A DNA stretch of 33,588 nt from a virus, in IMG/VR virus record IMGVR_UViG_3300034063_000640, positions 1 through 33,588 of that record, one strand, 5' to 3'. The translations under genes were made by a program, and so were the position numbers. Under the pieces are notes generated by a model, which had not been told where the DNA came from, searched no databases, and saw only the letters and a program-made list of their open reading frames with translations. The first letter of the stretch is position 1, and every line of letters begins with the position of its first letter. Positions 251-33,588 of this stretch are shown here, in pieces.

Positions 251-1444
251 ATGGCTTGGAGCGGAGGAACCTTCACGAGAGCAAATCCAACTTGGACGAC
301 TGATGCTAGTTTGGGCATTGGTATTGAGGCTGGGCGTCATGATGCTCAAGACAACGACTTCACTACTGGCATTAACCAATGCTTGAACAAGGATGGTAGT
401 AACTCTGCTACTGCCAACCTTAACCTTGGTGGCTACTTGCCTACTAACATTGGTGCTGGCACTGCTGCTGCTCCTGCTATTTGTGCTGGTAATGACATTG
501 ATACTGGCATCTTCTCTCCTGCTGCTAATCAAATTGGTATCGCTACTAACGGCGCTGAGAGAGTTAGGATTGATAATACTGGTAAGGTAGGTATTGGGAC
601 TACTGCGCCAACTTATGACTTTGAGGTAGCTGGTACAGCTACTCGCTGTCAAATTACTAGATTTAGTGCTGATACCGGAGGAACTCAAATAGATTTTGCA
701 AAATCTCGTGGTGCTACTGTTGGCACTAATACCATTGTGCAAAACGGAGATATTTTAGGCGTTTTACGTTTTTCCGGTGCGAACGGGACAGGATTTACGG
801 AAGCCGCATACGTTGCTGGATGGTGTGACGGAACTCCTGGCGCTTCAAATGATATGCCTGGACGTATTACCTTTGCTACAACAGCAGATGGCGCAGGCAC
901 CGCTAGCGAGCGGATGCGAATTACTGCCGGAGGTTTTCTATTCGTAAATACTACCACCAATTTTAGCGCAGATAGAATGTGCCTTGCGTATGATGCGACT
1001 CAAAATGGTCTTGGCATCAGAGACAACAACGACACCAGCGGTACTACCTTCGCAGTTTTTAGAAACTCAACAAATGGAATTTGCGGATCTGTTACACGAG
1101 TTACGACCACGAACGCTGTAAATTATAATACCTCGTCTGATTATAGATTAAAGGAAAACGTAGCACCGATAGCCGACGGATTGCAAAGGACGTTGCAGCT
1201 AAAGCCCGTTTCATTCGATTGGATTGACAGCTCTGAATCATCCGAAGGCTTTATCGCCCATGAAGTCGCAGAAGTCTTTCCTCACGCTGTTTCCGGCATA
1301 AAAGATGATATTGACGAAAACGGACAACCTAAATACCAAGGGGTTGACTACGGCAAGATTACGCCAATTCTGGCCGCTGCAATTAAAGAACTAAACGCCA
1401 AAGTAGAAGCTCTTGAAGCTCGTATAGCAGCGTTGGAAGCATGA
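251..1444 (+). CDS. Tail fibre/spike protein with C-terminal S74 intramolecular chaperone
   Basis: A 397-residue late virion protein. The ATG follows a GGAG box by several bases and the preceding transglycosylase gene by 9 bases. Residues 1-130 are Gly/Ala/Asn-rich with fibre-like text such as KVGIGTTAP (112-120). The C-terminal ~105 residues form a peptidase S74 domain: the SDYRLK motif (296-301) holds the Ser/Lys self-cleavage dyad, followed by GFIAHEVAEVFP (333-344), VDYGKITPILAAAIKEL (365-381) and a terminal coiled coil. In known S74 fibres and spikes the domain trimerises the protein and is cut off before the serine; this is family knowledge. It probably binds the host surface. The 3' end overlaps the next gene by ATGA. 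Confidence 0.9.
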   Translation: MAWSGGTFTRANPTWTTDASLGIGIEAGRHDAQDNDFTTGINQCLNKDGSNSATANLNLGGYLPTNIGAGTAAAPAICAGNDIDTGIFSPAANQIGIATNGAERVRIDNTGKVGIGTTAPTYDFEVAGTATRCQITRFSADTGGTQIDFAKSRGATVGTNTIVQNGDILGVLRFSGANGTGFTEAAYVAGWCDGTPGASNDMPGRITFATTADGAGTASERMRITAGGFLFVNTTTNFSADRMCLAYDATQNGLGIRDNNDTSGTTFAVFRNSTNGICGSVTRVTTTNAVNYNTSSDYRLKENVAPIADGLQRTLQLKPVSFDWIDSSESSEGFIAHEVAEVFPHAVSGIKDDIDENGQPKYQGVDYGKITPILAAAIKELNAKVEALEARIAALEA

Positions 1445-1860
1445 AGCAGCTTAGGTTAGTCAGAGTATCAGAGCATGACGGCGCTACGCTGGGAGTGCTC
1501 TGTATTGATGATGTGCCTGAGTTTGTTACGTTAGAGGATGCTTGGAGGGATAACGAGCGACAGATAAGTTGTATCCCTGTTGGTAGGTATAAGCTCAAAC
1601 CTAAAGTGAGTCCTAAGTTTGGCAGCACTTGGCAGGTAATGGATGTTCCTGAGCGGGATCATATTTTGTTTCACGCTGGCAATACGCACAAGGACACGCA
1701 TGGCTGTATCTTGCTTGGTTTGCAGTTTGGAAGGCTAGGCACCGAGACAGCTATCCTTGCCTCTCGCTCTGCTTTCTTGCAGTTCTTGCAAAAGATGAGT
1801 CCCGACAAGGAAGCTCAGTTGATTGTGATAGATGCTTATGGCGGTGGGAGGGTACATTGA
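1441..1860 (+). CDS. DUF5675 family protein in lysis-like cassette
   Basis: A 139-residue protein whose ATG overlaps the stop of the fibre gene (ATGA), implying translational coupling. It has the conserved features of DUF5675: FVTLEDAWRDNERQISCIP near residues 29-47, GRYKLKPKVSPKFGSTWQV, and ILFHAGNTHKDTHGCILLG near residues 75-93. The family is common beside holin and endolysin genes in phages. Its conserved His/Asp/Cys residues could form a catalytic or metal site, but the biochemical role is not established. The position between fibre and holin-like genes suggests a late role in lysis or cell-wall handling. Confidence 0.85.
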   Translation: MKQLRLVRVSEHDGATLGVLCIDDVPEFVTLEDAWRDNERQISCIPVGRYKLKPKVSPKFGSTWQVMDVPERDHILFHAGNTHKDTHGCILLGLQFGRLGTETAILASRSAFLQFLQKMSPDKEAQLIVIDAYGGGRVH

Positions 1861-2099
1861 CAGAAGGAGATTTTACCCAACTTCGCTATTGGCTGGATAT
1901 GCTGATTAAGGCTGCTATTGGCGTTGTGATTAGCATTGTTGGCTTGGACTATAGGTCGGTAAAGAATTCTCTGCATGAGCTTGAGCAGAGTAAATATAAG
2001 GTCACCATGGAAGTGCAGGTGATACAGGCTGAGTTGAGCCTGATTAAGCAGCGCCTTGAGCGCATAGAGCAGAAGCTAGACAGGGTGCTCGACAAATGA
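1857..2099 (+). CDS. Small membrane protein with coiled coil, holin-like
   Basis: An 80-residue protein starting at TTG, whose TTGA overlaps the preceding stop; GGTGGGAGGG just upstream is the Shine-Dalgarno box. One hydrophobic segment (about residues 14-30, IKAAIGVVISIVG) is followed by a long amphipathic helix (about 40-80) with heptad-like Leu/Ile spacing and charged residues (LIKQRLERIEQKLDRVL). The layout resembles small phage holin or XhlA-like accessory proteins, although XhlA has the coiled coil before the membrane segment. Another start is the ATG at 1896, which would shorten the N terminus to the edge of the membrane helix. Role in lysis is inferred from context. Confidence 0.7.
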   Translation: MTEGDFTQLRYWLDMLIKAAIGVVISIVGLDYRSVKNSLHELEQSKYKVTMEVQVIQAELSLIKQRLERIEQKLDRVLDK

Positions 2100-2920
2100 T
2101 GAGAGTGCTCGTAACGATACTATTAGTATCTATATGGGCACCGATAGCTATTGCAGCACCTAGTTTGTTAGCTCTTTGTCACAAGGATTGGAACTGTGCT
2201 GCCACTGTAAAGCTCTATAAAGGTTTTGAGCCGCTTGAAATTGGCTGGTTAGAGAAAACCTTTGCCCCTGATTGTAAATGCGCTGACAGGCTTTTAAAGG
2301 ACCGTAGGGACAAGGTAGTTCGGGTGCACCTGATTAACTCACCTTGCATGAGAAATAAGCGTTGTGGACGCTATGAGGTATTGTGGGGGTATAACAAGGT
2401 ATCTGCAAATAGGGCGGTACATATCTCTGAGTCGAGGCTTAATAGGCGGTTTAATCGGGTATTGGCTACGACGGCAAAGCGGTTAGAGAAGGCTAAGGGT
2501 AACCTTAGCTGCTTTGTTAGTCCTTGTTTGGAGTGCGATTTGAATGGACGAGCACGAAGAGTTTTGGCTGATAGGGTATCTGTTGCTTTGCCTCAGTGTA
2601 TTTTGGTGGACAATCCTTACCGGCAGGGTTGTCTCAGGGGAAGCGTATGTGAGTCCCACGGAGGCTCTCCTAGAGCTGTTACGCCTTGTATAGTGGACAT
2701 GGATGGTACGAGCGGCATAGAGCTTGACGTATCAGATTGGGCGAGACGGTATCGTAAATGTGAGTTACGGTATTACTGGGAACCTTGGATGAATTGCAAT
2801 CGGGGTAGCTTTGTAGACCCAAGGCAAAGGGATTGTAAGTTTAGCAATAGGTACTTTGAAAAGACTAGGGAGATATTATGCCAATCATTCTATCAATCGT
2901 CAGGCACTTGCTCACGTTAG
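2096..2920 (+). CDS. Secreted cysteine-rich protein in lysis-like cassette, glycosidase-like
   Basis: A 274-residue protein whose ATG overlaps the preceding stop (ATGA); a second ATG follows immediately. Residues 1-20 are a clear signal peptide, with likely cleavage in AIA/AP. The mature part has 18 cysteines, an even number suited to disulfides in the periplasm. Motifs seen: VRVHLINSPCMRNKRCG (75-91), FVSPCLECDL (140-149), ILVDNPY (169-175) and VCESHGG (184-190). Alternating strand-like blocks with Glu/Asp after strands look like a TIM-barrel glycosidase, and E146 is a candidate catalytic acid. I cannot assign a family with certainty. It could be the cell-wall hydrolase of this cassette, because no other candidate is encoded here. 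Confidence 0.6.
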   Translation: MMRVLVTILLVSIWAPIAIAAPSLLALCHKDWNCAATVKLYKGFEPLEIGWLEKTFAPDCKCADRLLKDRRDKVVRVHLINSPCMRNKRCGRYEVLWGYNKVSANRAVHISESRLNRRFNRVLATTAKRLEKAKGNLSCFVSPCLECDLNGRARRVLADRVSVALPQCILVDNPYRQGCLRGSVCESHGGSPRAVTPCIVDMDGTSGIELDVSDWARRYRKCELRYYWEPWMNCNRGSFVDPRQRDCKFSNRYFEKTREILCQSFYQSSGTCSR

Positions 2921-3066
2921 CCGCTGGAGGTTTATTGACCTTCGGCATCGAAGAGAGGGACGCAGCAAATCTTGTCCACGCCGCTGAGCCGGTTGTGGCT
3001 GGTGCTGTCTTGTATGGCGTCTCTCAGGCTTGGAGTTTGGTCGATAAGAAAAAACGACCTAAGTAA
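2878..3066 (+). CDS. Small two-helix holin-like membrane protein
   Basis: A 62-residue protein that overlaps the end of the preceding gene by 43 bases in another frame. AGGGAG lies at the right distance before its ATG. It has two hydrophobic stretches (about 3-23, LSIVRHLLTLAAGGLLTFG, and 38-54, VVAGAVLYGVSQAW), an acidic turn between them, and a basic tail KKKRPK. The pattern of RH-LLT-GG, an acidic turn, then a Trp-containing helix and Lys-rich end matches small phage holins. It ends the + strand late operon and overlaps the convergent early gene by 8 bases. Confidence 0.75.
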   Translation: MPIILSIVRHLLTLAAGGLLTFGIEERDAANLVHAAEPVVAGAVLYGVSQAWSLVDKKKRPK

Positions 3067-6591: not shown

Positions 6592-6879
6592 TTAAAACGG
6601 AATATCATCATCAAAGGCTGTTTCTTCACGCACTATTTTGCGGGATGCAATAGCCTCAGCCTCGTGTGTAGCCTTATCGCTTGCATAGCCGATAGCCTCT
6701 TCAATCATAGGGCCCAGTGCTTCAAGGTCAGTCTTGTAGAGATATTTAGAGTCCTTCCACTGGTCTGTTTGCTTGCACTTGTAACGCTTGCTAAGGGTAA
6801 AGCTGTAGCCTCCGTTGCTGGCTTCCCAGACTGCTATCGCCAAACCTTTGTTTCTAATTGTTTTCACTGGACCGCTCAT
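6592..6879 (-). CDS. PC4/YdbC-like ssDNA-binding protein with SSB-type tail
   Basis: A 95-residue protein, ATG at 6879 after GGAGAGAT. The core IRNKGLAIAVWEA, YSFTLSKRYKCKQ, DQWKDSKYLY and LEALGPMIEEAI resembles the small PC4/YdbC ssDNA-binding fold. It ends in FDDDIPF, the acidic-hydrophobic tip used by bacterial SSB to recruit repair and replication proteins. It probably coats ssDNA during replication or annealing together with RecT encoded nearby. It is a paralogue of the next upstream gene, with which it overlaps by 26 bases; only this copy has the tail. Fold assignment is inferred. Confidence 0.75.
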   Translation of the reverse strand: MSGPVKTIRNKGLAIAVWEASNGGYSFTLSKRYKCKQTDQWKDSKYLYKTDLEALGPMIEEAIGYASDKATHEAEAIASRKIVREETAFDDDIPF

Positions 6880-7165
6880 ATCTCTCCTTCACTTTGTCTA
6901 GTACGTTATCGATTGTTGTTTTAGTTGTCTCGACACCCTTTGGAAGCTCTACGACCGCTGCTTTTTTCGCGCCCCACGTTGCTGCTCTCAAAAACATTTC
7001 GCCTATCTCTCGCAACTCGTCTAAGTACAGCGTTTTAGTCTGCTTCCATTGTTGTGTTTGTTTGTCTTTATAGTGCTTTGCAAACTCAAACGACAGCTTG
7101 CCTTGATTTTCCCAGATTATTAGTTGAGCGTTTTTTGCTTTGAACGCTCCTATTCTTTGTCCCAT
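6854..7165 (-). CDS. PC4-like paralogue without SSB tail
   Basis: About 102 residues from the ATG at 7165, chosen because GAGGAAG lies 4 bases upstream; a longer frame from 7243 would overlap the upstream gene heavily. The core (QLIIWENQGKLSFEFAKHY, KDKQTQQWKQTKTLY, LREIGEMFL) aligns with the downstream protein at W-E, S-F, Y-K, K-Q-T, Q-W-K and L-Y. The last 35 residues are a charged helix (DNVLDKVKERYERSSENN) instead of the DDDIPF tip. The pair looks like a tandem duplication followed by specialisation, perhaps heteromeric. Confidence 0.72.
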   Translation of the reverse strand: MGQRIGAFKAKNAQLIIWENQGKLSFEFAKHYKDKQTQQWKQTKTLYLDELREIGEMFLRAATWGAKKAAVVELPKGVETTKTTIDNVLDKVKERYERSSENN

Positions 7166-7322
7166 AATCTTCCTCAATCGTTTGCTTGATCCACCGCAGA
7201 GCATCGACTTGTCCGAGTTCAAATTGAGATAAAATCTCCTCACTCTCGAACGTGTCTATGATGCGGCTTAGTTCTGTGTGCAGGTCACTTATCGTTTTCA
7301 ATGAATACCTCAAGAGCTTCAT
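7086..7322 (-). CDS. Small helical early protein, start uncertain
   Basis: A 78-residue frame from ATG 7322; a TTG at 7301 (71 residues) has the better GAGG box and a smaller overlap with the upstream gene (17 instead of 38 bases). The central part LHTELSRIIDTFESEEIL and FELGQVDALRWIKQTIEED is clearly protein-like and helical. The last 25 residues overlap the start of the PC4-like paralogue in another frame. No family recognised. The position between a ribbon-helix-helix protein and ssDNA-binding proteins suggests a recombination or regulatory accessory. Confidence 0.6.
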   Translation of the reverse strand: MKLLRYSLKTISDLHTELSRIIDTFESEEILSQFELGQVDALRWIKQTIEEDYGTKNRSVQSKKRSTNNLGKSRQAVV

Positions 7323-7467
7323 CGATTGCGTCAGTCATCCACACTCGCTTGTTGTCTGCGTAGGCTTTCAAAAAGTTCAGATATTCTTCTCGGATATACA
7401 GGGTGTACCTGACGAATCCGTCGCGAATCTTTTTGGCTTTTGGTTTGGTTTCCTTCTTTTTGCTCAT
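7285..7467 (-). CDS. Ribbon-helix-helix DNA-binding protein
   Basis: About 60 residues from ATG 7467, with GGAG 5 bases before it; a GTG at 7473 is less likely. A Lys-rich N terminus (MSKKKETKPKAKK) leads to a strand-helix-helix unit: FVRYTLYIREEYLNFLKAYADN and VWMTDAIDEALEVFIEN, typical of CopG/Arc-type dimers. Such proteins bind operators through the paired strand. It sits directly after RecT and after a small hairpin at 7480-7491. It may autoregulate or control the early operon. Confidence 0.75.
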   Translation of the reverse strand: MSKKKETKPKAKKIRDGFVRYTLYIREEYLNFLKAYADNKRVWMTDAIDEALEVFIENDK

Positions 7468-7479
7468 ATACACTCCATT

Positions 7480-7491
7480 GGGCTCTCGCCC
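7480..7491 (-). promoter_or_regulatory. Leader hairpin before the ribbon-helix-helix gene
   Basis: On the - strand GGGC-GAGA-GCCC forms a 4-bp stem with a GNRA-type tetraloop. It lies 12 bases upstream of the ATG and just before its GGAG box. Similar small hairpins precede several other early genes. Confidence 0.55.
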
Positions 7492-7496
7492 TTAAC

Positions 7497-8288
7497 CTAA
7501 TTGCTTTCCGTTTGAACAGGCTCATAACCTTCCTTGATATACTGAGTGAGTTTTGCGAGACGAATTGGGGAGCGCCAAATGTTAGGCTCTACTTCCTTGG
7601 CTTCAGACGACACAAGATAGTCTGTAGCCGATTGTCGCTTTCCCTGGTCAATAGTGCTGATATCATAGTAAGTCGTGACTGCACGTTTCTTTACTGCCTC
7701 GACTTCTGCGTTAGTAATCTTTTGAATACCCAGCACTTCGCCTGTCTTTTTGCTTACTACTAGCTGCTCATCGTCATTTGGAACGATAGTAGCTTGGGCA
7801 TACTGTGCTGGCATCTCCTCTGCTGTGTACAAGCCGCCTAGCTCTTGTATGAACGCTTCACGCAGGGCGAGGCTTTTCGCACACTTTGACAGCATTACTG
7901 ACGGCATCTGCTGCCAGATTGGAGTGCTCTTCTTGTACTCTGCCATGTATGCTGTAGCTACTGACGGAAAGCGGCGGTCCTTCCGGTAAACCTTAGCAGT
8001 TGCCGCTATTAGCTTACCTTCGTCCCACTCATAATCGACTTCCATCCCGTCGAATTGCGGGTGAGAGTTAGCTATTCGCAGGAAGCCGTTGATCCCTGTC
8101 ATGAGTTGTAACCGCCCACCGGCTTTGATTGCCCACACCTCTTTGGTGATAGGGTTTAGTCCTGTGCTTCGTACTATCTCGCCGAATAGCTGAAACTCAG
8201 CATCTGTGAGTCCTGGTGCTACGCTGTTACGCAGAGCGTTCAACATTTCTAGTGGTGAATTTGTTGTTGTAGTTAGTTCTTTAGTCAT
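7497..8288 (-). CDS. recT: RecT/Bet family single-strand annealing protein
   Basis: A 263-residue protein of the RecT/Bet annealing family. Signature parts are TGLNPITKEVWAI (42-54), GGRLQLMTGINGFLRIA (57-73), the WQQMPSVMLSKCAKSLALR block (125-143), and GGLYTAEEM (151-159). The first 160 residues form the annealing core and the rest is a variable tail ending with SPIRLAKLTQYIKEGYE. It anneals complementary ssDNA in recombination and replication repair. The start ATG overlaps the upstream gene by 8 bases. No Exo or RecE partner is encoded next to it; the only nuclease is the resolvase-like protein at the far end of the operon. Confidence 0.93.
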   Translation of the reverse strand: MTKELTTTTNSPLEMLNALRNSVAPGLTDAEFQLFGEIVRSTGLNPITKEVWAIKAGGRLQLMTGINGFLRIANSHPQFDGMEVDYEWDEGKLIAATAKVYRKDRRFPSVATAYMAEYKKSTPIWQQMPSVMLSKCAKSLALREAFIQELGGLYTAEEMPAQYAQATIVPNDDEQLVVSKKTGEVLGIQKITNAEVEAVKKRAVTTYYDISTIDQGKRQSATDYLVSSEAKEVEPNIWRSPIRLAKLTQYIKEGYEPVQTESN

Positions 8289-8520
8289 GGTCAGTTACCT
8301 CAAATAATTCGTAGACCTCTGGTGTAGCGTTATAAATACAATCATCGATTGCATCGTTTAAACTTTCCGTATCGTTGTTTGTCATTGCTGATAAGTTGTT
8401 CCAACCTACATAGGGGTCAAAGTAGAGTCTTCCGTCGGAAGTAAATTTACCTCTTACGGTAAACTCAACTCCTTGGTGTTCTAGTATGTAGTCTGGAAAC
8501 TGTGCTTGTAGTACCTTCAT
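8281..8520 (-). CDS. Small acidic early protein before recT
   Basis: A 79-residue acidic protein with a very strong ribosome-binding site (AAGGAGGAAGGATATATG). It contains EHQGVEFTVRGKFTSDGRLY (about 14-33), a strand-rich part, and an acidic C-terminal half (NNDTESLNDAIDDCIY...). Its end overlaps the recT start by 8 bases, so recT translation is probably coupled to it. No family recognised; it could be a DNA mimic or RecT partner, judged only by charge and position. Confidence 0.68.
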   Translation of the reverse strand: MKVLQAQFPDYILEHQGVEFTVRGKFTSDGRLYFDPYVGWNNLSAMTNNDTESLNDAIDDCIYNATPEVYELFEVTDHD

Positions 8521-8551
8521 ATATCCTTCCTCCTTAAAAGGTGTGCATACA

Positions 8552-9037
8552 TTATCTCACGAGTGTAGATAGTGCAATGACCTTTTGTGCATATTGTTTA
8601 CCCTCTTTGCAATTTACTTTGCCGCAGTTGTAGACGGTGAGTGCAGCCGATACATCGCCCAGTCTGTCAAGCTCCTGTCTCAGTATGAGAGCGCCGCACC
8701 TGACATTTGCTACTGCATCCCATAGCTGTTCATGCTCTAAGCCACATCGCTTAGCATTAAACGGCATGACCTGAGACAAGCCCCTGGCACCTACCCTTGA
8801 CTCTGCTTCTCGCTTGTAACCTGACTCAACCTTTACCAAGGCATGAAGCAATCGAGGCTCTAAGTCAAAAGCCTTCGCCGCTCTCGTTACTTCAGCCTCT
8901 ATGAGCCCCCTGGAAGGCTCTACAGGGCGCTTTAATAGCCTAGCCTGATGATAAACAACCGTTTCAGGTAAAGCGGTGTAGCAAGCGACTAAAGCGATTG
9001 CGGCGCATAACAAGCCGCCGCATGATTCACTGCTCAT
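8552..9037 (-). CDS. Early membrane-anchored lytic transglycosylase (SLT fold)
   Basis: A 161-residue protein. Residues 9-20 are hydrophobic with LVAC at 17-20, which can be a lipobox, although the N terminus lacks the usual positive charges. The catalytic core is SLT-type: LLHALVKVESGYKREAES with E71, VGARGLSQVMPF (82-93) and VYNCGK near the end. It would cleave peptidoglycan between MurNAc and GlcNAc. It is translated from an ATGA overlap with a 53-residue membrane peptide. It lies in the early operon, not with the late lysis cassette, so it may act in envelope remodelling or exclusion, or be the true endolysin. Confidence 0.85.
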   Translation of the reverse strand: MSSESCGGLLCAAIALVACYTALPETVVYHQARLLKRPVEPSRGLIEAEVTRAAKAFDLEPRLLHALVKVESGYKREAESRVGARGLSQVMPFNAKRCGLEHEQLWDAVANVRCGALILRQELDRLGDVSAALTVYNCGKVNCKEGKQYAQKVIALSTLVR

Positions 9038-9195
9038 CGCCGTGTTACCGTTTTAACTGCTTGGGCAGGGTCATCACCAAACACATAAACCCTGACGCCT
9101 ATTGTGCAAGTGACGATGCCGACGAAAAAGGCGACGTGAAGAACAGTGACAGCGATACCCGTAGGGGTGAAAAGTAGTTCCTTGATAGCTTTCAT
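9034..9195 (-). CDS. 53-residue membrane peptide coupled to the transglycosylase
   Basis: ATG at 9195, preceded by AAGGAG at good distance; stop TGA at 9034-9036 overlaps the start of the transglycosylase gene (ATGA). It reads MKAIKELLFTP, then a membrane helix (GIAVTVLHVAFFVGIVTCTI, about 13-32), then VRVYVFGDDPAQ and a basic tail KTVTRR. The topology and size resemble small holins or membrane anchors. It fills the gap between the transglycosylase and the lipoprotein. Function inferred from its partner. Confidence 0.78.
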   Translation of the reverse strand: MKAIKELLFTPTGIAVTVLHVAFFVGIVTCTIGVRVYVFGDDPAQAVKTVTRR

Positions 9196-9205
9196 GACTG
9201 TCTCC

Positions 9206-9406
9206 TTACTTTACGTTATCCACAGGTTGTCCACAGGTTTCCCACAGGTAGCATTTAAGCGGTACGTTGTGGGTCGCTTGTGACTCTTGGCGCTCGTCTA
9301 TACGACTGATCCAGAGCTTGCCGCCGACCTCCATCCCTGTACATGCTGAGCAAGCGAGCATACACGATGCAAGCAGGAATTTTCCGATTGTAAATAGGTG
9401 TTTCAT
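9206..9406 (-). CDS. Small early lipoprotein
   Basis: A 66-residue protein with a charged start (MKHLFTIGK), hydrophobic stretch and LASC at 12-15, a good lipobox; further Cys follow at 19 and 22. The mature part (TGMEVGGKLWISRIDERQ and PLKCYLWETCGQP) has two more Cys. The leader GGATATATG and a hairpin (9424-9443) precede it. Small lipoproteins in phages serve as Rz1-type spanins or as exclusion proteins; the length suits either, but no Rz partner is seen. It belongs to an early envelope group. Confidence 0.75.
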   Translation of the reverse strand: MKHLFTIGKFLLASCMLACSACTGMEVGGKLWISRIDERQESQATHNVPLKCYLWETCGQPVDNVK

Positions 9407-9423
9407 ATATCCCCATTGTTAAA

Positions 9424-9443
9424 CTCTGCCGATATTGACAGAG
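9424..9443 (-). promoter_or_regulatory. Leader hairpin before the lipoprotein gene
   Basis: On the - strand CTCTGTC-AATATC-GGCAGAG pairs over 7 bp (one U-G). It lies 17 bases upstream of the ATG-proximal GGGGATATATG box, between the secreted protein and lipoprotein genes. Confidence 0.55.
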
Positions 9444-9476
9444 GCTCTACCCCCCACAGCGTAGGGGATAGCGTCT

Positions 9477-9797
9477 CTACCAATCGAAACCTTTGATAGG
9501 ATTGCCCAAGGCATCGTTCGGGACCACTTTTTGGATAGTCTCTCGTTTGGTCGCCTTGGTTATACCTTGCGCTCTTGCAAACGGGTCAACCACCTCCCTT
9601 TCAGTAGTAACTACGCTCCAGCCTGTGCCCCAAGGACCGCCGTTATTTGGCACCGGCAAGACCGGCTGAACGCCGATATTTAGCTCGTTGTTGCGGGGTG
9701 CGTATTCGTCCAGGTCGTTGCCGATCATCCAATCGTAGCCATCCTGAGCCATGGCAACCGAAGGGATAAGTAAACCGGTTAGTAGTAGTGCTTTCAT
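9477..9797 (-). CDS. Secreted early protein of unknown function
   Basis: A 106-residue protein with a textbook signal peptide: MKALLLTGLLIPSVAMA, cleaved before QDG. The mature chain is about 89 residues, rich in Pro, Asn and Gly (IGVQPVLPVPNNGGPWGTGW), with a charged middle (TTEREVVDPFARAQ) and a basic helix (ITKATKRETIQK). AAGGAAAA precedes the ATG and the upstream gene ends one base before it. It is the first of four consecutive early genes whose products enter or cross the inner membrane. No family recognised. Confidence 0.75.
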   Translation of the reverse strand: MKALLLTGLLIPSVAMAQDGYDWMIGNDLDEYAPRNNELNIGVQPVLPVPNNGGPWGTGWSVVTTEREVVDPFARAQGITKATKRETIQKVVPNDALGNPIKGFDW

Positions 9798-9798
9798 G

Positions 9799-10038
9799 TT
9801 ATTTTCCTTGAATTACATTACTTAGTCTTTCTTGACGTTGCTCGGACGTCAGCCAATCTAAACTAGCGACATGCTCAATTTCGCTCATTAAACGCCTATG
9901 ACTGACACCATTTTTGTATGCTTCGTAAAACGGAATTGTCAGCATCAACATGTTGAATGATAGCGTTTCTGGACATAATCGTTCGCAATAACTCAGATAT
10001 TTATTCCAAGTATATTTATATTCATTTTCTCTCTTCAT
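9799..10038 (-). CDS. Small early protein of unknown function
   Basis: A 79-residue protein starting with the GGATATATG leader and preceded by the hairpin at 10055-10068. It is charged and helical, with YTWNKYLSYCERLCPETL (about 9-26), a short hydrophobic part MLMLTIPFYEAYKNG and a basic-acidic tail (SLDWLTSEQRQERLSNVI). No signal peptide or metal site beyond two Cys is visible. Cytosolic; function unknown. Confidence 0.68.
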   Translation of the reverse strand: MKRENEYKYTWNKYLSYCERLCPETLSFNMLMLTIPFYEAYKNGVSHRRLMSEIEHVASLDWLTSEQRQERLSNVIQGK

Positions 10039-10054
10039 ATATCCCTTTCGCTTG

Positions 10055-10068
10055 GGGCTTAATTGCCC
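10055..10068 (-). promoter_or_regulatory. Leader hairpin before the 10038 gene
   Basis: GGGC-AATTAA-GCCC on the - strand, 16 bases upstream of the start codon at 10038 and between the stop of one gene and the ribosome-binding site of the next. It is nearly identical to 10396-10409. Confidence 0.6.
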
Positions 10069-10070
10069 TC

Positions 10071-10382
10071 TTAGTAGTTACCCAGTTTAAATTCGCCCAC
10101 CATTTCCTGCGCCATATACTCAGCAAGTTTAAGGCGCTCAGACCGAGGGAACATACCTTTCACTGAATCGGTCATGCTGCCGAACTCTAAAAGGTACTGC
10201 TTTGCGGCTGGTAACAGGCAGTAACGGTCAATGTACGCAATTGCTCGATCAAGGCTGTAGGTGCCTTTCTGATGGAACTTGCCAAGGGTTTTATACCCTG
10301 GTTCATAGTAGGCTCGCCCCACGTTGTTCTTGCAGTACAACTCAAGCTCAATCATTTCGTGCGTTAGTGATTCTCTATTCAT
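10071..10382 (-). CDS. First gene of the inner early operon, unknown function
   Basis: A 103-residue protein. The start carries the GTGAGGATATATG leader. It is helical, with MNRESLTHEMIELELYCKNN, YYEPGYKTLGKFHQKGTYS and LAEYMAQEMVGEFKLGNY. It has no signal, membrane or metal motif. A -35/-10 pair (10420-10449) lies just upstream, so this gene opens the transcript that continues to the envelope group and recT. Function unknown; a role soon after infection is inferred from position. Confidence 0.68.
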   Translation of the reverse strand: MNRESLTHEMIELELYCKNNVGRAYYEPGYKTLGKFHQKGTYSLDRAIAYIDRYCLLPAAKQYLLEFGSMTDSVKGMFPRSERLKLAEYMAQEMVGEFKLGNY

Positions 10383-10395
10383 ATATCCTCACTCG

Positions 10396-10409
10396 GGGCT
10401 TTATTGCCC
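10396..10409 (-). promoter_or_regulatory. Leader hairpin before the 10382 gene
   Basis: GGGC-AATAAA-GCCC on the - strand, directly upstream of the GTGAGGATATATG start region. It matches 10055-10068 except for one loop base. Confidence 0.6.
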
Positions 10410-10419
10410 TCTCTTAATG

Positions 10420-10449
10420 ACTATACACACTCAGATGATAGTCGTGCAA
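10420..10449 (-). promoter_or_regulatory. Predicted early promoter
   Basis: On the - strand TTGCAC (10444-10449), an 18-base spacer and TATAGT (10420-10425) form a sigma-70-like promoter. Transcription would start near 10413 and enter the gene at 10382 through the small hairpin. The TTGCA element is shared with the promoter predicted at 12491-12519. Confidence 0.6.
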
Positions 10450-10508
10450 GATAATATTCGGATATTTTGCAGGTTACTTGAGGAAAAATGCTAACCCGCT
10501 GAAACGGC

Positions 10509-10550
10509 AAAAGAAAACCCCGCTACGGTATCGCTACGCATAACGGGGTT
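10509..10550 (-). terminator. Hairpin/terminator in the divergent leader
   Basis: AACCCCG (10516-10522) pairs with CGGGGTT (10544-10550). Read on the - strand it is followed by TTTTCTT, so it can stop leftward transcripts that would interfere with the early promoter at 10420-10449. Read on the + strand it has no U run but sits directly before AGGATATATG at 10551-10560, like the leader hairpins of early genes. The loop holds a direct repeat GCTACG. Confidence 0.55.
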
Positions 10551-10557
10551 AGGATAT

Positions 10558-10629
10558 ATGATACATTTAGGATATCAGATAAATCCGATTTACGCCAAGG
10601 ATTTTATTCGGTACGATGCCGGAGAATAA
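10558..10629 (+). CDS. Possible 23-residue leader peptide
   Basis: A short frame with ATG at 10558 and stop at 10627-10629. It starts with the exact AGGATATATG signature seen at early genes on the other strand, and is preceded by a 7-bp hairpin. It would encode MIHLGYQINPIYAKDF and a short acidic end. It lies just before the hairpin and ribosome-binding site of the initiator gene, so it could be a leader peptide or a small regulator. Very short; no direct evidence of expression. Confidence 0.35.
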   Translation: MIHLGYQINPIYAKDFIRYDAGE

Positions 10630-10669
10630 AAAAAGGGGCGGTTACTCGTCAAAGTTAAACCACCCCTTT
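10628..10669 (-). terminator. Intrinsic terminator on the - strand, leader hairpin on the + strand
   Basis: AAAGGGGCGGTT (10632-10643) pairs with AACCACCCCTTT (10658-10669) with one mismatch in 12. On the - strand it is followed by seven uridines, a strong intrinsic terminator for leftward transcripts that run antisense through the initiator gene. On the + strand the same hairpin sits immediately upstream of AAAGGAACATC-ATG, the initiator's ribosome-binding site, and may affect its translation. Confidence 0.7.
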
Positions 10670-10680
10670 AAAGGAACATC

Positions 10681-11235
10681 ATGAACAAACATACCAAAAA
10701 AACTCGTTGGGGAATAGTGGACTATGATCTCGTTGATCAAGGTATCCCCATTCTTGAGACAATCGTCTACAGCTACATAAAACGGTATCAGCGAAACAGG
10801 GGGTCAGTTTGGGCTTCCATCCCTCATATCGCTAAAGACCTACGCATGTCCGAAAGTTCCGTTCAACGGTACATCAAACATCTGCTAAAGGTTGGACTGC
10901 TCAAAGATAGCGTCAAAGGTAGGGGGAGATACCTGACTGTGACCCATGTCAAACTGACTGAAACCCCTGTCAAATTGACTGACGACCCTTGTCAATCTGA
11001 TATGAATGACCCTTGTCAAATTGACATGCTACCGAAGTTAGATCACCGAAGTTATATACCGATCAGTAATAACCGATCAGATATAAATACTAAGATTAAA
11101 CCTAAGACTGGTGTAGTTAAGGGGGAGAGTGTGAGAGGGGTAGCGGCTCCCCCAGCCAGAAAGCCGCTTAGTGCTCAAACCCGAGATTGGCTAGCTGAAA
11201 TGACTGGTGTCAGTCTTGATGACCTACCCGATTAG
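10681..11235 (+). CDS. Winged-helix replication initiator (lambda O-like) containing the origin
   Basis: A 184-residue protein, the only long + strand gene in the early region. AAAGGAACATC precedes the ATG. Residues 22-88 form a winged helix-turn-helix as in phage replication proteins and HTH_36 (IPHIAKDLRMSESS, then VQRYIKHLLKVGLLKD and a wing with KGRGRYLTV). Residues 88-140 are a low-complexity linker whose DNA carries four iterons and a 13/14-mer array. The C terminus (LSAQTRDWLAEMTGVSLDDLPD split as 163-184) could recruit a host helicase loader. It probably binds its own gene to start theta replication. The phage encodes no polymerase or helicase that I recognise. Confidence 0.8.
   Translation: MNKHTKKTRWGIVDYDLVDQGIPILETIVYSYIKRYQRNRGSVWASIPHIAKDLRMSESSVQRYIKHLLKVGLLKDSVKGRGRYLTVTHVKLTETPVKLTDDPCQSDMNDPCQIDMLPKLDHRSYIPISNNRSDINTKIKPKTGVVKGESVRGVAAPPARKPLSAQTRDWLAEMTGVSLDDLPD
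10942..11025 (+). other. Origin iterons: four 17-bp repeats with dyad symmetry
   Basis: Four copies of ACCCNTGTCAAATTGAC-like sequence start at 10942, 10963, 10985 and 11009 (spacing 21, 22 and 24, about two helical turns). The core GTCAAATTGAC is an 11-bp palindrome around a central A; copies two and four are perfect in it. They lie inside the initiator gene in the encoded linker, as the iterons of lambda ori lie inside gene O. They are the likely binding sites for the encoded winged-helix protein. Confidence 0.8.
11031..11090 (+). other. AT-rich tandem 13/14-mers with GATC, candidate DNA unwinding element
   Basis: Four tandem units begin with ACCGA at 11031, 11045, 11058 and 11072: ACCGAAGTTAGATC, ACCGAAGTTATAT, ACCGATCAGTAATA and ACCGATCAGATATA, running into AT-rich sequence. 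GATC occurs at 11041, 11061 and 11075. The array directly follows the iterons. Its layout recalls the 13-mers with GATC of bacterial oriC and the AT-rich half of lambda ori. Confidence 0.7.
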
Positions 11236-11291
11236 CCTTTAAAGCCTCTAGGACGAACGCTATTGAAAGATAAAGGGTTGGGGTAGGGTTA

Positions 11292-11325
11292 CCCCTAGGT
11301 CACAGGGTAAAATGCAACCTAGGGG
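11292..11325. terminator. Strong inverted repeat between convergent genes
   Basis: CCCCTAGGT (11292-11300) pairs perfectly with ACCTAGGGG (11317-11325), with a 16-base loop. It lies between the + strand initiator gene and the - strand gene ending at 11343. Neither side has a proper U run, so it may be a weak or factor-assisted terminator, an mRNA 3'-end protector or a protein-binding site. Confidence 0.5.
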
Positions 11326-11342
11326 GGTTTAGAGGGTAACGG

Positions 11343-11726
11343 TTAGTAGCCGACGTAGTAAAACCAACGGCCATCACTCGACTGAAACAAACTGCTACTT
11401 ACCTGACCTGATTCCTGAGCTTCGGTGTAACTTTCATAAGACGAGTAATCTTCCATCTCTCGGATTGCCGAGGCTACATCCTGAATCATAGCCGCTTGAA
11501 CCTCAGCATCCGACCATCTCCTCGCATCATCACCGAAACCCATCGATGCAAAATACTCACGAACTTCCTCACACTGCTCAGGTTTGAGTAAGGGTGACCG
11601 TTTGGCATACTCCTGAGAGTTATCCCAGGTTAATGCTCCTGCTCTATCGCCTAATTCTGCTACACTGCCGCTAAGATATGGCATGTAGTCGGAATCGTTA
11701 ACCATATTTGTAACTTCAATTTCCAT
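11343..11726 (-). CDS. Acidic early protein of unknown function
   Basis: A 127-residue protein with many Asp/Glu and few basic residues. The start has the GTGAGGATATATG leader, part of a 23-bp sequence identical to that at the next upstream gene. Middle part: LLKPEQCEEVREYFASMGFG and RRWSDAEVQAAMIQDVASAI; end: SLFQSSDGRWFYYVGY, which looks like a strand hairpin. No family recognised. Its acidity and early position are typical of host-takeover or anti-defence proteins, but this is only a guess. Confidence 0.68.
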   Translation of the reverse strand: MEIEVTNMVNDSDYMPYLSGSVAELGDRAGALTWDNSQEYAKRSPLLKPEQCEEVREYFASMGFGDDARRWSDAEVQAAMIQDVASAIREMEDYSSYESYTEAQESGQVSSSLFQSSDGRWFYYVGY

Positions 11727-11746
11727 ATATCCTCACTTGCTTAGTC
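11724..11746. repeat. 23-bp leader repeat, copy 1
   Basis: On the - strand GACTAAGCAAGTGAGGATATATG, shown here in part as GTGAGGATATATG, is identical to 11921-11943. It holds ribosome-binding site and start codon and here also covers the stop of the upstream gene. Confidence 0.85.
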
Positions 11747-11923
11747 GTTATCGAGTTGAATAAAAGAGTATTCTTTCGCTATCTCATCATCAGTCCACTT
11801 TTCTATGTCGTAACGTAGCCCCAACTTAATCAAAAATTCCCATTCTTTCGGATTATCGCAAGCGCATTCAAACCTGTCGTCAATCAGCGCCTGAATCATT
11901 TTCTGTTTCATTTCTTCGTGCAT
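11741..11923 (-). CDS. Small acidic early protein
   Basis: A 60-residue acidic protein (MHEEMKQKMIQALIDDRFE, then CACDNPKEWEFLIKLGLRY and KWTDDEIAKEYSFIQLDND). Start with the same 23-bp leader as its downstream neighbour. Helical with two close Cys, no signal peptide. It is unknown. Part of a run of four small early proteins (12456 to 11343) that are the first to be transcribed from the divergent region. Confidence 0.62.
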   Translation of the reverse strand: MHEEMKQKMIQALIDDRFECACDNPKEWEFLIKLGLRYDIEKWTDDEIAKEYSFIQLDND

Positions 11924-11943
11924 ATATCCTCACTTGCTTAGTC
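11921..11943. repeat. 23-bp leader repeat, copy 2
   Basis: Identical to 11724-11746. On the - strand it is the ribosome-binding site and start of the 60-residue acidic gene. Confidence 0.85.
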
Positions 11944-11953
11944 TCATCAGTAC

Positions 11954-11990
11954 GGGCACAACCCGCAGACTCCCCAAAGGGAGTTTCGAC
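11954..11990 (-). promoter_or_regulatory. Double hairpin in the early intergenic leader
   Basis: Two small inverted repeats stand side by side: CGGG-TTGTG-CCCG and ACTCCC-CAAA-GGGAGT (6-bp perfect stem). They occupy the 68-base gap between two early genes. They may be attenuators, mRNA-processing sites or protein-binding elements. Confidence 0.5.
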
Positions 11991-11991
11991 C

Positions 11992-12195
11992 TTACATCGG
12001 CACAATTCTAATTTTGAGTGGAACGCTACTGTTATTACCAGCGGAAATGTATAAGGCATAAGATTCTAGTCGCTCTACTGCCTCATCATCAGATTCAGCT
12101 ATACCCGTGTAAACCGTTCGACCGTTGACGGTTATCATGTATTCTTGACCCTCCGATATAGCTACCTCATCTCTCGTAGTGTTTTTGATTGTCAT
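11992..12195 (-). CDS. Small acidic early protein with strand-rich fold
   Basis: A 67-residue protein starting at GGAGGATATATG. The sequence GQEYMITVNGRTVYTGIAES, DDEAVERLESYALYISAGN and VPLKIRIVPM suggests strand-strand-helix-strand, and is mildly acidic. The palindrome CTTTTAATTAAAAG lies immediately before its ribosome-binding site and includes the upstream stop. No family recognised. Confidence 0.65.
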   Translation of the reverse strand: MTIKNTTRDEVAISEGQEYMITVNGRTVYTGIAESDDEAVERLESYALYISAGNNSSVPLKIRIVPM

Positions 12196-12204
12196 ATATC
12201 CTCC

Positions 12205-12218
12205 CTTTTAATTAAAAG
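12205..12218 (-). promoter_or_regulatory. Leader palindrome before the 12195 gene
   Basis: A 14-bp perfect palindrome, CTTTTAATTAAAAG, directly upstream of GGGAGGATATATG on the - strand. It overlaps the last codons of the upstream gene. Position matches the hairpins before other early starts. Confidence 0.5.
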
Positions 12219-12456
12219 CGCGTGTTAGCGTTTGAACAAACTCTTTAACCGAGATATCGCCCACCGTGTTTTGTTGTAAACCGTCTACGACATATCGTTG
12301 TAGCCAAGTGTTATACCCTTTCACTGAGACCTGCTTCCCTGCTACACAACCCACAAAAGCATACCAATGGTCCTTATTACCTTTGCGTGTTGTATTAATT
12401 AGGTGAACAAACTCCTCAGCCGTTATGCTCTTTTCGGTATAGTCTAGTATTTTCAT
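12208..12456 (-). CDS. First gene of the early operon, unknown function
   Basis: 82 residues from ATG 12456, which has GGAGGACAT directly before it; a longer frame from 12522 would begin upstream of the predicted promoter's start site and is unlikely. Text: MKILDYTEKSITAEEFVHLI, then NTTRKGNKDHWYAFVGCV, AGKQVSVKGYNTWLQRYVV and ISVKEFVQTLTRAFN. It looks like a compact alpha/beta protein. A promoter (12491-12519) lies about 40 bases upstream, so this is the first early product. Function unknown. Confidence 0.68.
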   Translation of the reverse strand: MKILDYTEKSITAEEFVHLINTTRKGNKDHWYAFVGCVAGKQVSVKGYNTWLQRYVVDGLQQNTVGDISVKEFVQTLTRAFN

Positions 12457-12490
12457 ATGTCCTCCGTAGTCACTATTGACTGTACTCACT

Positions 12491-12519
12491 AGTATGACAG
12501 TAAGATGCAGGGTATGCAA
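12491..12519 (-). promoter_or_regulatory. Predicted main early promoter
   Basis: On the - strand TTGCAT (12514-12519), a 17-base spacer and CATACT (12491-12496) form a sigma-70-like promoter reading into the first early gene. The following leader has symmetric pieces (GTCAATAGTGAC) that may be an operator. It shares TTGCA with 10420-10449. Confidence 0.55.
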
Positions 12520-12562
12520 CAAGAGAATGCAGATTTTTAGGGGCTAGCGTTATTTTTGTTTT

Positions 12563-12572
12563 GACTATAGTC
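12563..12572. promoter_or_regulatory. Palindromic operator-like site overlapping a -10 box
   Basis: GACTATAGTC is a perfect 10-bp palindrome. Its TATAGT (12566-12571) could be a -10 box for the + strand gene, with the ATG at 12578 and GTG at 12580 at or beside the start of transcription. A dimeric repressor bound here would block that promoter. Confidence 0.45.
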
Positions 12573-12579
12573 TAAGTAT

Positions 12580-12891: not shown

Positions 12892-13069
12892 TTACTACTT
12901 TACGAGAACCAAAAAACTATTAACCTATGCATAAACCTATAGCAATATCAAATGGTTAGCGTGAAATACCCTAATAGAGTTTCCAAAATCCAAACGAATT
13001 CGAAAACGCAACGGGTACCAGTTATCGCCATATCCCACCTCCCATACAAAAATCCCACCCCTAGTTTTT
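12892..13069 (+). promoter_or_regulatory. Late control/packaging-site region upstream of TerS
   Basis: A 178-base gap without a gene. It holds a direct repeat AACCTAT (twice near 12922-12945), an AT-rich first half, and a pyrimidine-rich second half with ATCCCACC at 13032-13039 and again at 13052-13059 (20-base spacing). No Shine-Dalgarno box precedes TerS. The region is the natural place for the late promoter and for cos or pac, but I cannot point to the exact element. Confidence 0.4.
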
Positions 13070-31849: not shown

Positions 31850-33588
31850 TGGCTGATTTATTCGATGAAGCTGACGCATTGTTTAGCGCTCCTGCTGTTT
31901 CAGCCACGCCTGTAGCAACGCCGTTTCCAGGTGCTGAACAAGTTGCGGCATCTGCGCCACAATCTTCATTACTTTCTAGTCTATCGTCTTATATTCCTAG
32001 CTTACAAACTATTGCACAAGAATCCACAGGGCTTGCTGGTAGCTTAGCTGGAGGCAAGGTTGGAGTTTTGGCTGGCACTTCTTTAGCACCCCTCACGTTT
32101 GGATTGTCAATTCCCGTTGGAGGTGTTTTAGGAGGCGCACTAGGTTATCTTGGCGGTTCCACGCTAGGTAAAGCCGGTGCAGAGCTTGCTGCCGGAGAAG
32201 AGGCTGATTTAGCCAAAATTGCACAAGCGCAAGTCGAACCTGCTTTAGTAGGAGCTGGTGTCGAATCTTTATTGATGGGTGCTGGTCCAGTCGGTCGAGT
32301 TTTAGCCACTGCCGGCAAAGGTGCCAAACGAGCGGCATACGGTTTTAGAGCTGGTGACTATGCAAAGACGCTTGGTAAACGACAAGCGGTTAAGACTGCT
32401 GAAGGCGAAACAATTAGTTTAACGCAACAACAAGCAGACAATGTAATTGAAAAAGGTTTTCTTGGTTCTTCGTCTAGTCCATCAAGGCAACTTAATACAC
32501 TTGATGCGAGCATGGATGAAACTAATCAAGCTATTTCAACACTGCTCAAAAATGTCGATGAGGTAGTCAAAACACCACAATTTATAGATGTAGTCAAAGC
32601 GAATCAAAAAGGCGTTTTTGGTGCTGAGAATGAGAGACTCTATTCTTCTAAAATTGGTGAATTAAAAGACAAGCTAAACACTCTTCGAGGTTCAGCTAAA
32701 CTTGAGTACATGCAAGAGCAAAAAAAGTTTTATGGTTCTAAGTATGATCCAATGGCTACAAGCGCCGATGGTAAGTTTAACAGAGCCATGTATCACGAAT
32801 TACAGGCAGCTATTGAGCGATATGCCCCTGAAGTAAAGTCCCTAAATAAAGACTTGCAAGGAATGATTCTTACTCGTCCGGTTATTGCCAGAGAGCAAGC
32901 GAAAGAAAGCAGTGGTATTTTGACTGCGATCAATCTCGCTCGCACAGCAGGATTTACTACTGGTGGTTTATTTGGCGCTGGTGCTCAAGGTCTTTTAGGT
33001 CCGGTAGGCGGTGCTGCATTAGGTTTAGGTGGTGCTTTCTTGTCGTCTCGTACAGGTAGGAGACTACTTGCTTCAGCATTGGAAGGCGCTGGAACTGCGT
33101 TACCTCAAGTTGCGGGCGCTGCTCAACCACTAGCTGCTGTTGCTCGTGGTTTGATGGCTCCCTCAGAAGCAGTAGTTGAAACTCCTATGGCCGCACCTGT
33201 CATGACTGAGACGGCACCTACACCGAGTGTAGATGTGTTTAATGAGGCAGAAAGTCTCTTCACTGCGCCTGAACCTCAGAAGGTAAAAGTTGGCAAGCAA
33301 GACGTTTCGATTCCACAAGGTGAAGGATATGCCCCACCTGATTTAGTCAAAGCGGTGATGCAGGTTGAATCAGCAGGTAAACCCAAAGCTGTTAGCAGCA
33401 AGGGTGCTGCTGGTTTGATGCAGCTCATGCCAGCTACGGCTAAGGATTTAGGTGTTGAGGATAGGTTTGACCCCGAGCAGAATGTGGAGGGTGGCAGTAG
33501 GTATCTTGCTCAACAGTTAAAAGAGTTTGGTCAACCTGAGCTTGCCTTAGCTGCCTACAACTGGGGACCAAGAAACATTGAAAATGCT
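31849..33588 (+). CDS. Ejection protein with C-terminal lytic transglycosylase domain (continues at 1-241)
   Basis: The main part of a 617-residue gene that runs off the right end and finishes at 241. N-terminal part: MADLFDEADALFSAP and two Gly-rich hydrophobic segments (about 63-105, and around 372-405) suited to membrane insertion. Residues about 461-474 repeat the N-terminal motif (VDVFNEAESLFTAP). The SLT domain starts near 494: VMQVESAGKPKAVSSKG with catalytic E507, then GLMQLMPATAKDLG from 522 and AAYNWGP in the left-end part. It digests peptidoglycan for DNA delivery. Confidence 0.9.
   Translation, partial: MADLFDEADALFSAPAVSATPVATPFPGAEQVAASAPQSSLLSSLSSYIPSLQTIAQESTGLAGSLAGGKVGVLAGTSLAPLTFGLSIPVGGVLGGALGYLGGSTLGKAGAELAAGEEADLAKIAQAQVEPALVGAGVESLLMGAGPVGRVLATAGKGAKRAAYGFRAGDYAKTLGKRQAVKTAEGETISLTQQQADNVIEKGFLGSSSSPSRQLNTLDASMDETNQAISTLLKNVDEVVKTPQFIDVVKANQKGVFGAENERLYSSKIGELKDKLNTLRGSAKLEYMQEQKKFYGSKYDPMATSADGKFNRAMYHELQAAIERYAPEVKSLNKDLQGMILTRPVIAREQAKESSGILTAINLARTAGFTTGGLFGAGAQGLLGPVGGAALGLGGAFLSSRTGRRLLASALEGAGTALPQVAGAAQPLAAVARGLMAPSEAVVETPMAAPVMTETAPTPSVDVFNEAESLFTAPEPQKVKVGKQDVSIPQGEGYAPPDLVKAVMQVESAGKPKAVSSKGAAGLMQLMPATAKDLGVEDRFDPEQNVEGGSRYLAQQLKEFGQPELALAAYNWGPRNIENA
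33462..33588. repeat. Right copy of 127-bp terminal direct repeat
   Basis: Exact copy of 1-127. Joining 33461 to 1 restores a full transglycosylase gene in frame, which supports a circular unit of 33,461 bp. See the left copy for interpretation. Confidence 0.95.

What the first reader, a model, noticed from the sequence alone, without database searches (positions are those of the whole stretch)
8552..9797. Four consecutive early genes for envelope proteins, including a second transglycosylase
Seen: secreted protein (9477-9797), lipoprotein (9206-9406), 53-residue membrane peptide (9034-9195) and membrane-anchored SLT transglycosylase (8552-9037), the last two coupled by ATGA, all in the early - strand operon upstream of recT. 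Known: phage lysis genes are normally late, and the late cassette here (1441-3066) is separate. Inference: this group may remodel the envelope early, block superinfection, or act as a lysis system regulated differently.
Basis: partly seen in the sequence, partly recalled or inferred. Interest (0 to 1): 0.65.

Follow-up and report, generated by a model that had tools for sequence, protein, structure and literature searches.

The report
Accessory phage cell-envelope cassette near recT
Next to its DNA-recombination gene this uncultured virus of bacteria carries three tightly linked genes, for an outer-membrane lipoprotein, a tiny inner-membrane protein and a membrane-tethered wall-cutting enzyme, which recur as an optional unit in several unrelated virus groups and are separate from the virus's usual lysis genes, so they probably alter the envelope of the infected cell, perhaps to shut out competing viruses.

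Summary
The four ORFs are real (conserved, dN/dS 0.05-0.09). They are not one unit. The core is three genes: a small lipoprotein (9206-9406), a 53-aa single-pass peptide (9034-9195) and an N-terminally anchored SLT transglycosylase with intact catalytic motifs (8552-9037). In 55 of 55 IMG/VR sequence groups holding all three, the order is the same. Peptide and transglycosylase genes overlap as [AG]TGA in 54/60. The secreted gene (9477-9797) follows recT and is separable.

The trio occurs beside recT, beside ERF, between a family-B DNA polymerase gene and a RecA-like gene in T4-like phages, and in a 59-kb phage. Lipoprotein and peptide have no homologue in Pfam, PHROGs, NCBIfam, PADLOC, PDB, 50,697 phage records or 84,980 prokaryote genomes. 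Every recT/ERF-group record tested (23/23) also has a late lysis-type region on the opposite strand, and relatives lacking the trio keep it. So it is an accessory envelope cassette, not the main lysis cassette.

Most likely function: superinfection exclusion (about 0.38). Auxiliary lysis or lysis timing is a close rival (0.30); an anchored SLT endolysin with an overlapping upstream regulator is known in Campylobacter phages. Early transcription is inferred from position only.

The parts
9206..9406 (-). LIPO: 66-aa lipoprotein precursor, about 45 aa mature, lipobox SAC-TG; conserved C[TS]GxExG[GA][KR]...RVDERQES...PLKCY...C
   Evidence: 10 invariant residues in 45 diverse sequences; +2 residue T/S predicts outer membrane
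9034..9195 (-). TM: 53-aa single-pass membrane peptide (LLFTPTGIAVTVLHVAFFVGIVTC...GDDP)
   Evidence: no family match
8552..9037 (-). LT: 161-aa N-terminally anchored SLT-type lytic transglycosylase; catalytic Glu71 and GARGLSQVMP/YNCG motifs intact
   Evidence: PF01464 E 1.5e-19; Glu71 invariant in alignment A4; lipobox-like LVAC at residue 19
9034..9037 (-). ATGA stop/start overlap of TM and LT
   Evidence: [AG]TGA in 54/60 and TAATG in 3/60 relatives
9477..9797 (-). SEC: 106-aa secreted protein (signal peptide AMA-QD); associated with recT, not a core member of the cassette
9424..9471 (-). two hairpins between SEC and LIPO (stems 9447-9471 and 9424-9443)
   Evidence: folding z = -2.7; hairpins with unrelated stem sequence at the same place in many relatives
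8281..8520 (-). 79-aa gene between cassette and recT
7497..8288 (-). recT-type single-strand annealing protein, the cassette's usual neighbour
   Evidence: PF03837 E 2.5e-29
1441..1860 (+). late region: DUF5675 protein (HAGN..THGC motif)
   Evidence: PF18925 E 8.2e-33
1857..2099 (+). late region: 80-aa TM plus coiled-coil protein
   Evidence: sequence; weak PHROG matches only
2096..2920 (+). late region: 274-aa secreted (b/a)8-barrel protein, hydrolase-like fold, candidate lysis enzyme
   Evidence: AlphaFold2 pLDDT 91.2; best VIA-align Z 14.6 to GH5 mannanases
2878..3066 (+). late region: holin of the Pam3 gp28 family
   Evidence: PF23987 E 8.8e-8
33217..33588 (+). first SLT domain, inside a long virion-type ORF that continues at 1-157 through the terminal repeat

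Best explanation
A mobile, accessory three-gene envelope cassette carried in the replication/recombination (early-type) region. The lipoprotein is predicted to sit on the periplasmic face of the outer membrane, the 53-aa peptide in the inner membrane, and the transglycosylase to be tethered to the inner membrane and made in coupled amounts with the peptide. Shown by sequence: gene anatomy, conservation, order, overlap, intact active-site motifs, accessory status, and separation from the late lysis-type region. Inferred: the proteins act during infection on the envelope of the infected cell, most likely as superinfection exclusion at the periplasmic/inner-membrane stage. On this view the transglycosylase opens peptidoglycan locally so that the lipoprotein and peptide can meet or reach the entry channel of an incoming phage, whose own virion carries a related SLT domain, and stall DNA entry. 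Confidence in 'accessory envelope cassette, not the main lysis cassette' is about 0.85; the confidence given here is for the exclusion mechanism.
For: Same order in 55/55 sequence groups. Present in at least three phage backgrounds: recT/ERF group, T4-like, and a 59-kb phage. Dispensable: absent between SEC and recT in L173, L174, L165, L202 and G020, and G020-G024 keep DUF5675 and the virion SLT. On the strand opposite the late DUF5675 gene in 23/23 records. The lipoprotein plus membrane-peptide pair can lack the enzyme (L098), and in L197/L200 the same slot holds an unrelated lipoprotein plus membrane-peptide pair without an enzyme. In T4-like contigs the cassette directly follows the DNA polymerase gene, the position of the T4 exclusion gene imm after gene 43. 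Known precedent: small early outer-membrane lipoproteins such as T5 Llp exclude superinfection from the periplasmic side (PMC9586334).
Against: No sequence similarity to any known exclusion protein was detected in the libraries searched. The proteins evolve slowly, whereas receptor-jamming proteins might be expected to diversify. An exclusion system does not obviously need a peptidoglycan lyase. The composition (outer membrane, inner membrane, wall enzyme) also fits lysis. The polymerase-recA interval is variable in T4-like phages, so the imm position may be coincidence. No expression or functional data.
Confidence: 0.38

Rival explanations
1. Auxiliary lysis or lysis-timing module. The anchored transglycosylase is an endolysin of the membrane-tethered (SAR-like or TMD-anchored) kind, the coupled peptide is its holin-, releasin- or inhibitor-like regulator, and the lipoprotein helps disrupt or brace the outer membrane.
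For: Firehammervirus F379 has a TMD-anchored PF01464 endolysin with a small upstream overlapping gene that inhibits it, outside any cassette (PMC7692668). Mu uses a single-TMD releasin for a SAR endolysin (PMC9239132). Peptide-LT overlap or TAATG in 57/60. The LT anchors are often Gly/Ala-rich. No o-spanin-like lipoprotein was found in the late region.
Against: A separate late region with a holin-family protein and DUF5675 is present in every recT/ERF-group record of the first set, and DUF5675 remains in relatives without the trio. L099 has its own GH24 lysozyme on the opposite strand. L098 keeps lipoprotein and peptide but not the enzyme. The peptide is too short for an i-spanin and the lipoprotein is not Pro-rich.
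Confidence: 0.3
2. Specialised transglycosylase that makes room for a phage-made or host trans-envelope complex, in the way IagB, EtgA or VirB1 serve secretion systems, for a purpose other than exclusion or lysis (for example uptake or export during infection).
For: LT resembles the specialised LT IagB (NCBIfam E 1.5e-6, below that family's cut-off) and EtgA (PDB profile hit 6.6e-5); it is nearly always beside a lipoprotein and a membrane peptide.
Against: No other candidate subunits of a trans-envelope machine are linked to it. Matches to tail and housekeeping LTs are stronger.
Confidence: 0.14
3. Chance neighbours, or the main lysis cassette in an unusual place.
For: None beyond proximity.
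Against: 55/55 conserved order, including unrelated phages, rules out chance. A separate late lysis-type region and natural absence of the trio argue against the main lysis role.
Confidence: 0.05

Closest known systems
T5 Llp / T1-family Cor superinfection-exclusion lipoproteins
   Same: very small phage lipoprotein, outer membrane, expected early expression
   Different: no sequence similarity found; here always with a membrane peptide and nearly always with a transglycosylase; strongly conserved rather than receptor-specific
T4 Imm and Sp (spackle)
   Same: small envelope proteins encoded among replication genes; the T4-like carriers have the trio directly after the DNA polymerase gene, as imm follows gene 43
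   Different: no homology detected; Sp is known to inhibit lysozyme (own knowledge), here an enzyme with intact catalytic motifs is encoded
Campylobacter Firehammervirus F379_024/F379_025 pair (PMC7692668)
   Same: membrane-anchored PF01464 endolysin with a small overlapping gene just upstream, outside a lysis cassette
   Different: F379_024 is 106 aa with no known motif and the endolysin 224 aa with a coiled coil; no lipoprotein partner; here a separate late lysis-type region exists
Phage Mu SAR endolysin gp22 with releasin gp25 (PMC9239132)
   Same: membrane-tethered wall enzyme plus single-TMD partner
PRD1 P7 transglycosylase
   Same: 39-40% identity over about 100 aa, among the best-scoring LT matches in 50,697 phage records
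   Different: annotated there as transglycosylase / DNA-delivery protein of a different kind of phage, without the lipoprotein and peptide partners
IagB/EtgA/VirB1 specialised transglycosylases
   Same: small SLT enzymes encoded with trans-envelope machinery
   Different: weak similarity only; no secretion genes nearby

Membership tests
SLT-type lytic transglycosylase (PF01464) | SLT domain above gathering score with catalytic Glu and GLxQ / YNxG motifs | tested here: met
   70.2 bits against cut-off 21.3; Glu71 invariant in A4
Lipoprotein (type II signal peptide), LIPO | n-region, hydrophobic stretch and lipobox Cys in 9206-9406 | tested here: met
   invariant Cys22 in 45 aligned sequences; -1 residue G or A in those listed
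Lipoprotein (type II signal peptide), LT anchor | lipobox Cys at the end of the LT anchor | tested here: inconclusive
   lipobox-like Cys in 38 of 59 LT anchors (one of these, L179, is probably a false match), absent in the rest; recT-clade n-regions mostly lack K/R
[quoted passage not shown]
   Gly/Ala-rich anchors fit, but a positive n-region is missing in the window protein and release cannot be tested
Two-component spanin | i-spanin with long periplasmic coiled coil plus Pro-rich o-spanin | tested here: not met
   the peptide has only about 15-20 residues beyond its TM segment; the lipoprotein is not Pro-rich
Holin | match of the peptide to a known holin family | tested here: not met
   no Pfam, PHROG or NCBIfam match for 9034-9195; the late 2878-3066 protein is the holin-family member
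Holin | forms membrane holes at a set time | not testable with these tools
   needs an expression assay
Superinfection-exclusion protein (Llp/Cor/Imm/Sp) | sequence similarity to a known exclusion protein | tested here: not met
   no match in Pfam, PHROGs, NCBIfam, PADLOC, PDB or 50,697 phage records
Superinfection-exclusion protein (Llp/Cor/Imm/Sp) | blocks adsorption or DNA entry of a second phage | not testable with these tools
   needs experiment
Superinfection-exclusion protein (Llp/Cor/Imm/Sp) | expressed early | tested here: inconclusive
   position only: replication/recombination neighbours and strand opposite the late genes in 23/23

The most novel reading that the evidence does not exclude
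A previously undescribed, phage-mobile trans-envelope device in which an outer-membrane lipoprotein and an inner-membrane peptide, supplied with their own coupled peptidoglycan lyase, form an exclusion barrier or checkpoint across the envelope of the infected cell. It would be a new mechanism of superinfection exclusion, shared by the recT/ERF phage group and T4-like phages.
Probability: 0.25. Interest if true: 0.78.

Novelty: new variant of a known kind. Interest (0 to 1): 0.52.

Why it matters
Two of the three core proteins belong to families absent from the protein-family libraries searched, from 50,697 phage records and from 84,980 prokaryote genomes, yet they are common in metagenomic phages and move between unrelated phage lineages as a fixed unit. 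A wall-degrading enzyme in the early-type region, with lysis-type genes kept elsewhere, asks what a phage gains by cutting the wall before lysis. The unit is under 1 kb and directly testable in a laboratory host.

Tried and rejected
Main lysis cassette: rejected because the late DUF5675 and holin-family genes coexist with it in all recT/ERF-group records tested and the trio is dispensable. Four-gene unit: rejected; SEC occurs without the trio in six sequence groups with ample downstream sequence, and the trio without SEC in eight with ample upstream sequence. Prophage or bacterial origin: two scans of genome contigs found no relative. Known phage relatives: no lipoprotein match and one chance peptide match in 50,697 records; no DNA match to the region. 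Llp-like fold: the AlphaFold2 model of the lipoprotein is low confidence (pLDDT 66, pTM 0.32), so no fold comparison was made. o-spanin complementation test: no late-region lipoprotein was found with or without the trio on the parts held, so it is not informative. Promoter and terminator scan 6800-13100: no more hits than in shuffles. Papers on an early transglycosylase plus lipoprotein unit: none found.

Full report
What is there. Only the transglycosylase has a family match: Pfam SLT, E 1.5e-19. The other three have none in Pfam, PHROGs, NCBIfam or PADLOC beyond a hit of signal-peptide length. The window carries an exact 127-bp terminal repeat and is an IMG/VR record of 33,588 bases, so it is most likely a complete phage. 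Late genes (terminase, portal related to those of Myxococcus phages Mx8/Mx9, tail genes, lysis-type region) run on the + strand. The second SLT domain of the genome lies in a long + strand virion-type ORF across the record ends.

Relatives. tblastn-confirmed scans of IMG/VR with the LT, lipoprotein (A2), peptide (A1), secreted protein (A3) and a joined profile (A5) returned some 240 loci. Those of the first four scans collapse to 71 sequence groups plus the window. In the 55 groups that hold lipoprotein, peptide and LT on the same piece, the order is lipoprotein-peptide-LT on one strand in all 55, and the lipoprotein-peptide gap is 40 nt or less in 51. The peptide stop and LT start overlap as ATGA or GTGA in 54 of 60 and adjoin as TAATG in 3 more, so translational coupling is probably a conserved feature. 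dN/dS is 0.05-0.09 for all four genes, like recT, so the small ORFs are real genes under purifying selection.

Three plus one, not four. The secreted gene SEC precedes the trio in 45 of the 55 groups, in the recT clade only. It stands beside recT without the trio in L165, L173, L174, L197, L200 and L202. The trio occurs without SEC in the ERF clade (L148-L152), in L050 and L089, and in L099. Neighbour identities: ERF family E 1e-16 in L030; DNA polymerase B upstream in L050 and L089; RecA downstream in L040. The RecA-like protein of L040 is closest to that of Methylophilales phage Melnitz and Pelagibacter phage HTVC008M (58% identity); neither annotated region shows the trio. The trio is thus a mobile unit found in at least three phage backgrounds, of 34% to 67% G+C.

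It is accessory and not the main lysis cassette. All 18 recT/ERF-group records in a first set carry one DUF5675 gene and a Pam3-gp28-family holin gene, and five of a second set carry DUF5675 with the trio LT. In all 23 the DUF5675 gene is on the strand opposite the trio. Five related records without the trio (G020-G024) have only the virion SLT but keep DUF5675; G020 also shows the holin and the barrel protein, and SEC directly followed by recT. L098 has lipoprotein and peptide but no LT, and neither DUF5675 nor that holin family. L099, a 59-kb phage, has the trio on one strand and a GH24 lysozyme plus a barrel-protein homologue on the other. In L197 and L200 the slot between SEC and recT holds an unrelated lipoprotein (88 aa) that overlaps a 61-aa membrane peptide, without enzyme. 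The constant element is therefore a lipoprotein plus a membrane peptide; the enzyme is the part that can be missing.

Late region. The 274-aa secreted protein (2096-2920) has a confident (b/a)8-barrel model (pLDDT 91.2), best aligned to GH5-type glycoside hydrolases (Z 14.6, rmsd 3.3 over 226 residues, 8% identity; Foldseek E values all above 0.001). It is conserved through the group, including genomes without DUF5675 or without the trio. It is a candidate late lysis enzyme, but that is inference.

Anatomy of the core proteins. Lipoprotein: invariant lipid Cys, +2 residue T or S (outer-membrane routing by the usual rule, established knowledge), motif RVDERQES and a PLKCY...C pair that could form a disulfide. 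Peptide: conserved IK..LF, LH, VG, T, G and G.DP around one hydrophobic stretch. LT: catalytic Glu71, Cys98 and Cys114 invariant in the alignment; Cys138 and Cys143 lost together; invariant YH..R just after the anchor. A lipobox-like Cys is present in 38 of 59 anchors (one likely false), and the other anchors are plain short hydrophobic segments. So lipidation is not required for the design, whereas membrane tethering is constant.

Mechanism. Shown by sequence: overlapping genes for an inner-membrane-type peptide and a tethered wall enzyme next to a small lipoprotein gene, in the replication/recombination region, dispensable, mobile, separate from the late genes. Inferred: the group acts on the envelope before lysis. 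I favour superinfection exclusion for these reasons: accessory distribution; early-type location; substitution of the slot by another lipoprotein-peptide pair; occurrence without the enzyme; the position directly after the polymerase gene in T4-like carriers, where T4 has imm; and the precedent that small periplasm-facing lipoproteins exclude superinfection (T5 Llp, PMC9586334). A lysis role is close behind. Firehammervirus phages use a TMD-anchored SLT endolysin with an overlapping upstream inhibitor gene (PMC7692668), and Mu pairs a SAR endolysin with a single-TMD releasin (PMC9239132). A specialised enzyme for a trans-envelope complex is a third option (IagB-like similarity).

Limits. No transcription data; 'early' rests on position. 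Host unknown; no relative in 84,980 prokaryote genomes. IMG/VR contigs are often fragments, so absence of the trio was accepted only where SEC and recT are joined on the same piece. Contigs that share identical 300-mers were merged before counting; the counts are of sequence groups, not of independent evolutionary events.

Noticed in passing
window 2096-2920 (+); homologues in most loci, e.g. L099:9654-10877 (-), L058:8806-9786 (+): A Cys-rich secreted (b/a)8-barrel protein sits between the coiled-coil membrane protein and the holin in the late region; no family match, glycoside-hydrolase-like fold. It may be an undescribed class of phage lysis enzyme.
   Followed up: partly
window 1441-1860 (+): The DUF5675 protein has an HAGN...THGC motif reminiscent of L,D-transpeptidases and is nearly universal in this phage group, always with the late genes.
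   Followed up: partly
window 9424-9471 and the same place in relatives: Strong hairpins between SEC and LIPO with unrelated stem sequences in different lineages (z to -5.5), not followed by a U-run; possibly a processing or attenuation site that separates expression of SEC from the trio.
   Followed up: partly
L197:791-1242 and L200:1896-2347: An unrelated lipoprotein plus membrane-peptide gene pair, overlapping by one base, in the slot where the trio normally lies.
   Followed up: partly
G002:22816 (-), G012:14633 (+), L197:2352 (-), L200:3460 (-): A second small lipoprotein family with a CW.T(D/E)K...C.P-like motif; downstream of the cassette on the same strand in G002 and G012.
   Followed up: no
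window 1-127 and 33462-33588: Exact 127-bp terminal repeat; the record is opened inside the virion SLT gene.
   Followed up: yes
L050:1937-3043 and L089:6822-7928: The family-B DNA polymerase ORF beside the trio is only 368 aa and seems to lack the N-terminal part, as if the polymerase gene were split in these T4-like phages.
   Followed up: no
window 10681-11235 (+): A replication-initiation (O-like) gene lies on the + strand inside the otherwise - strand early region.
   Followed up: no
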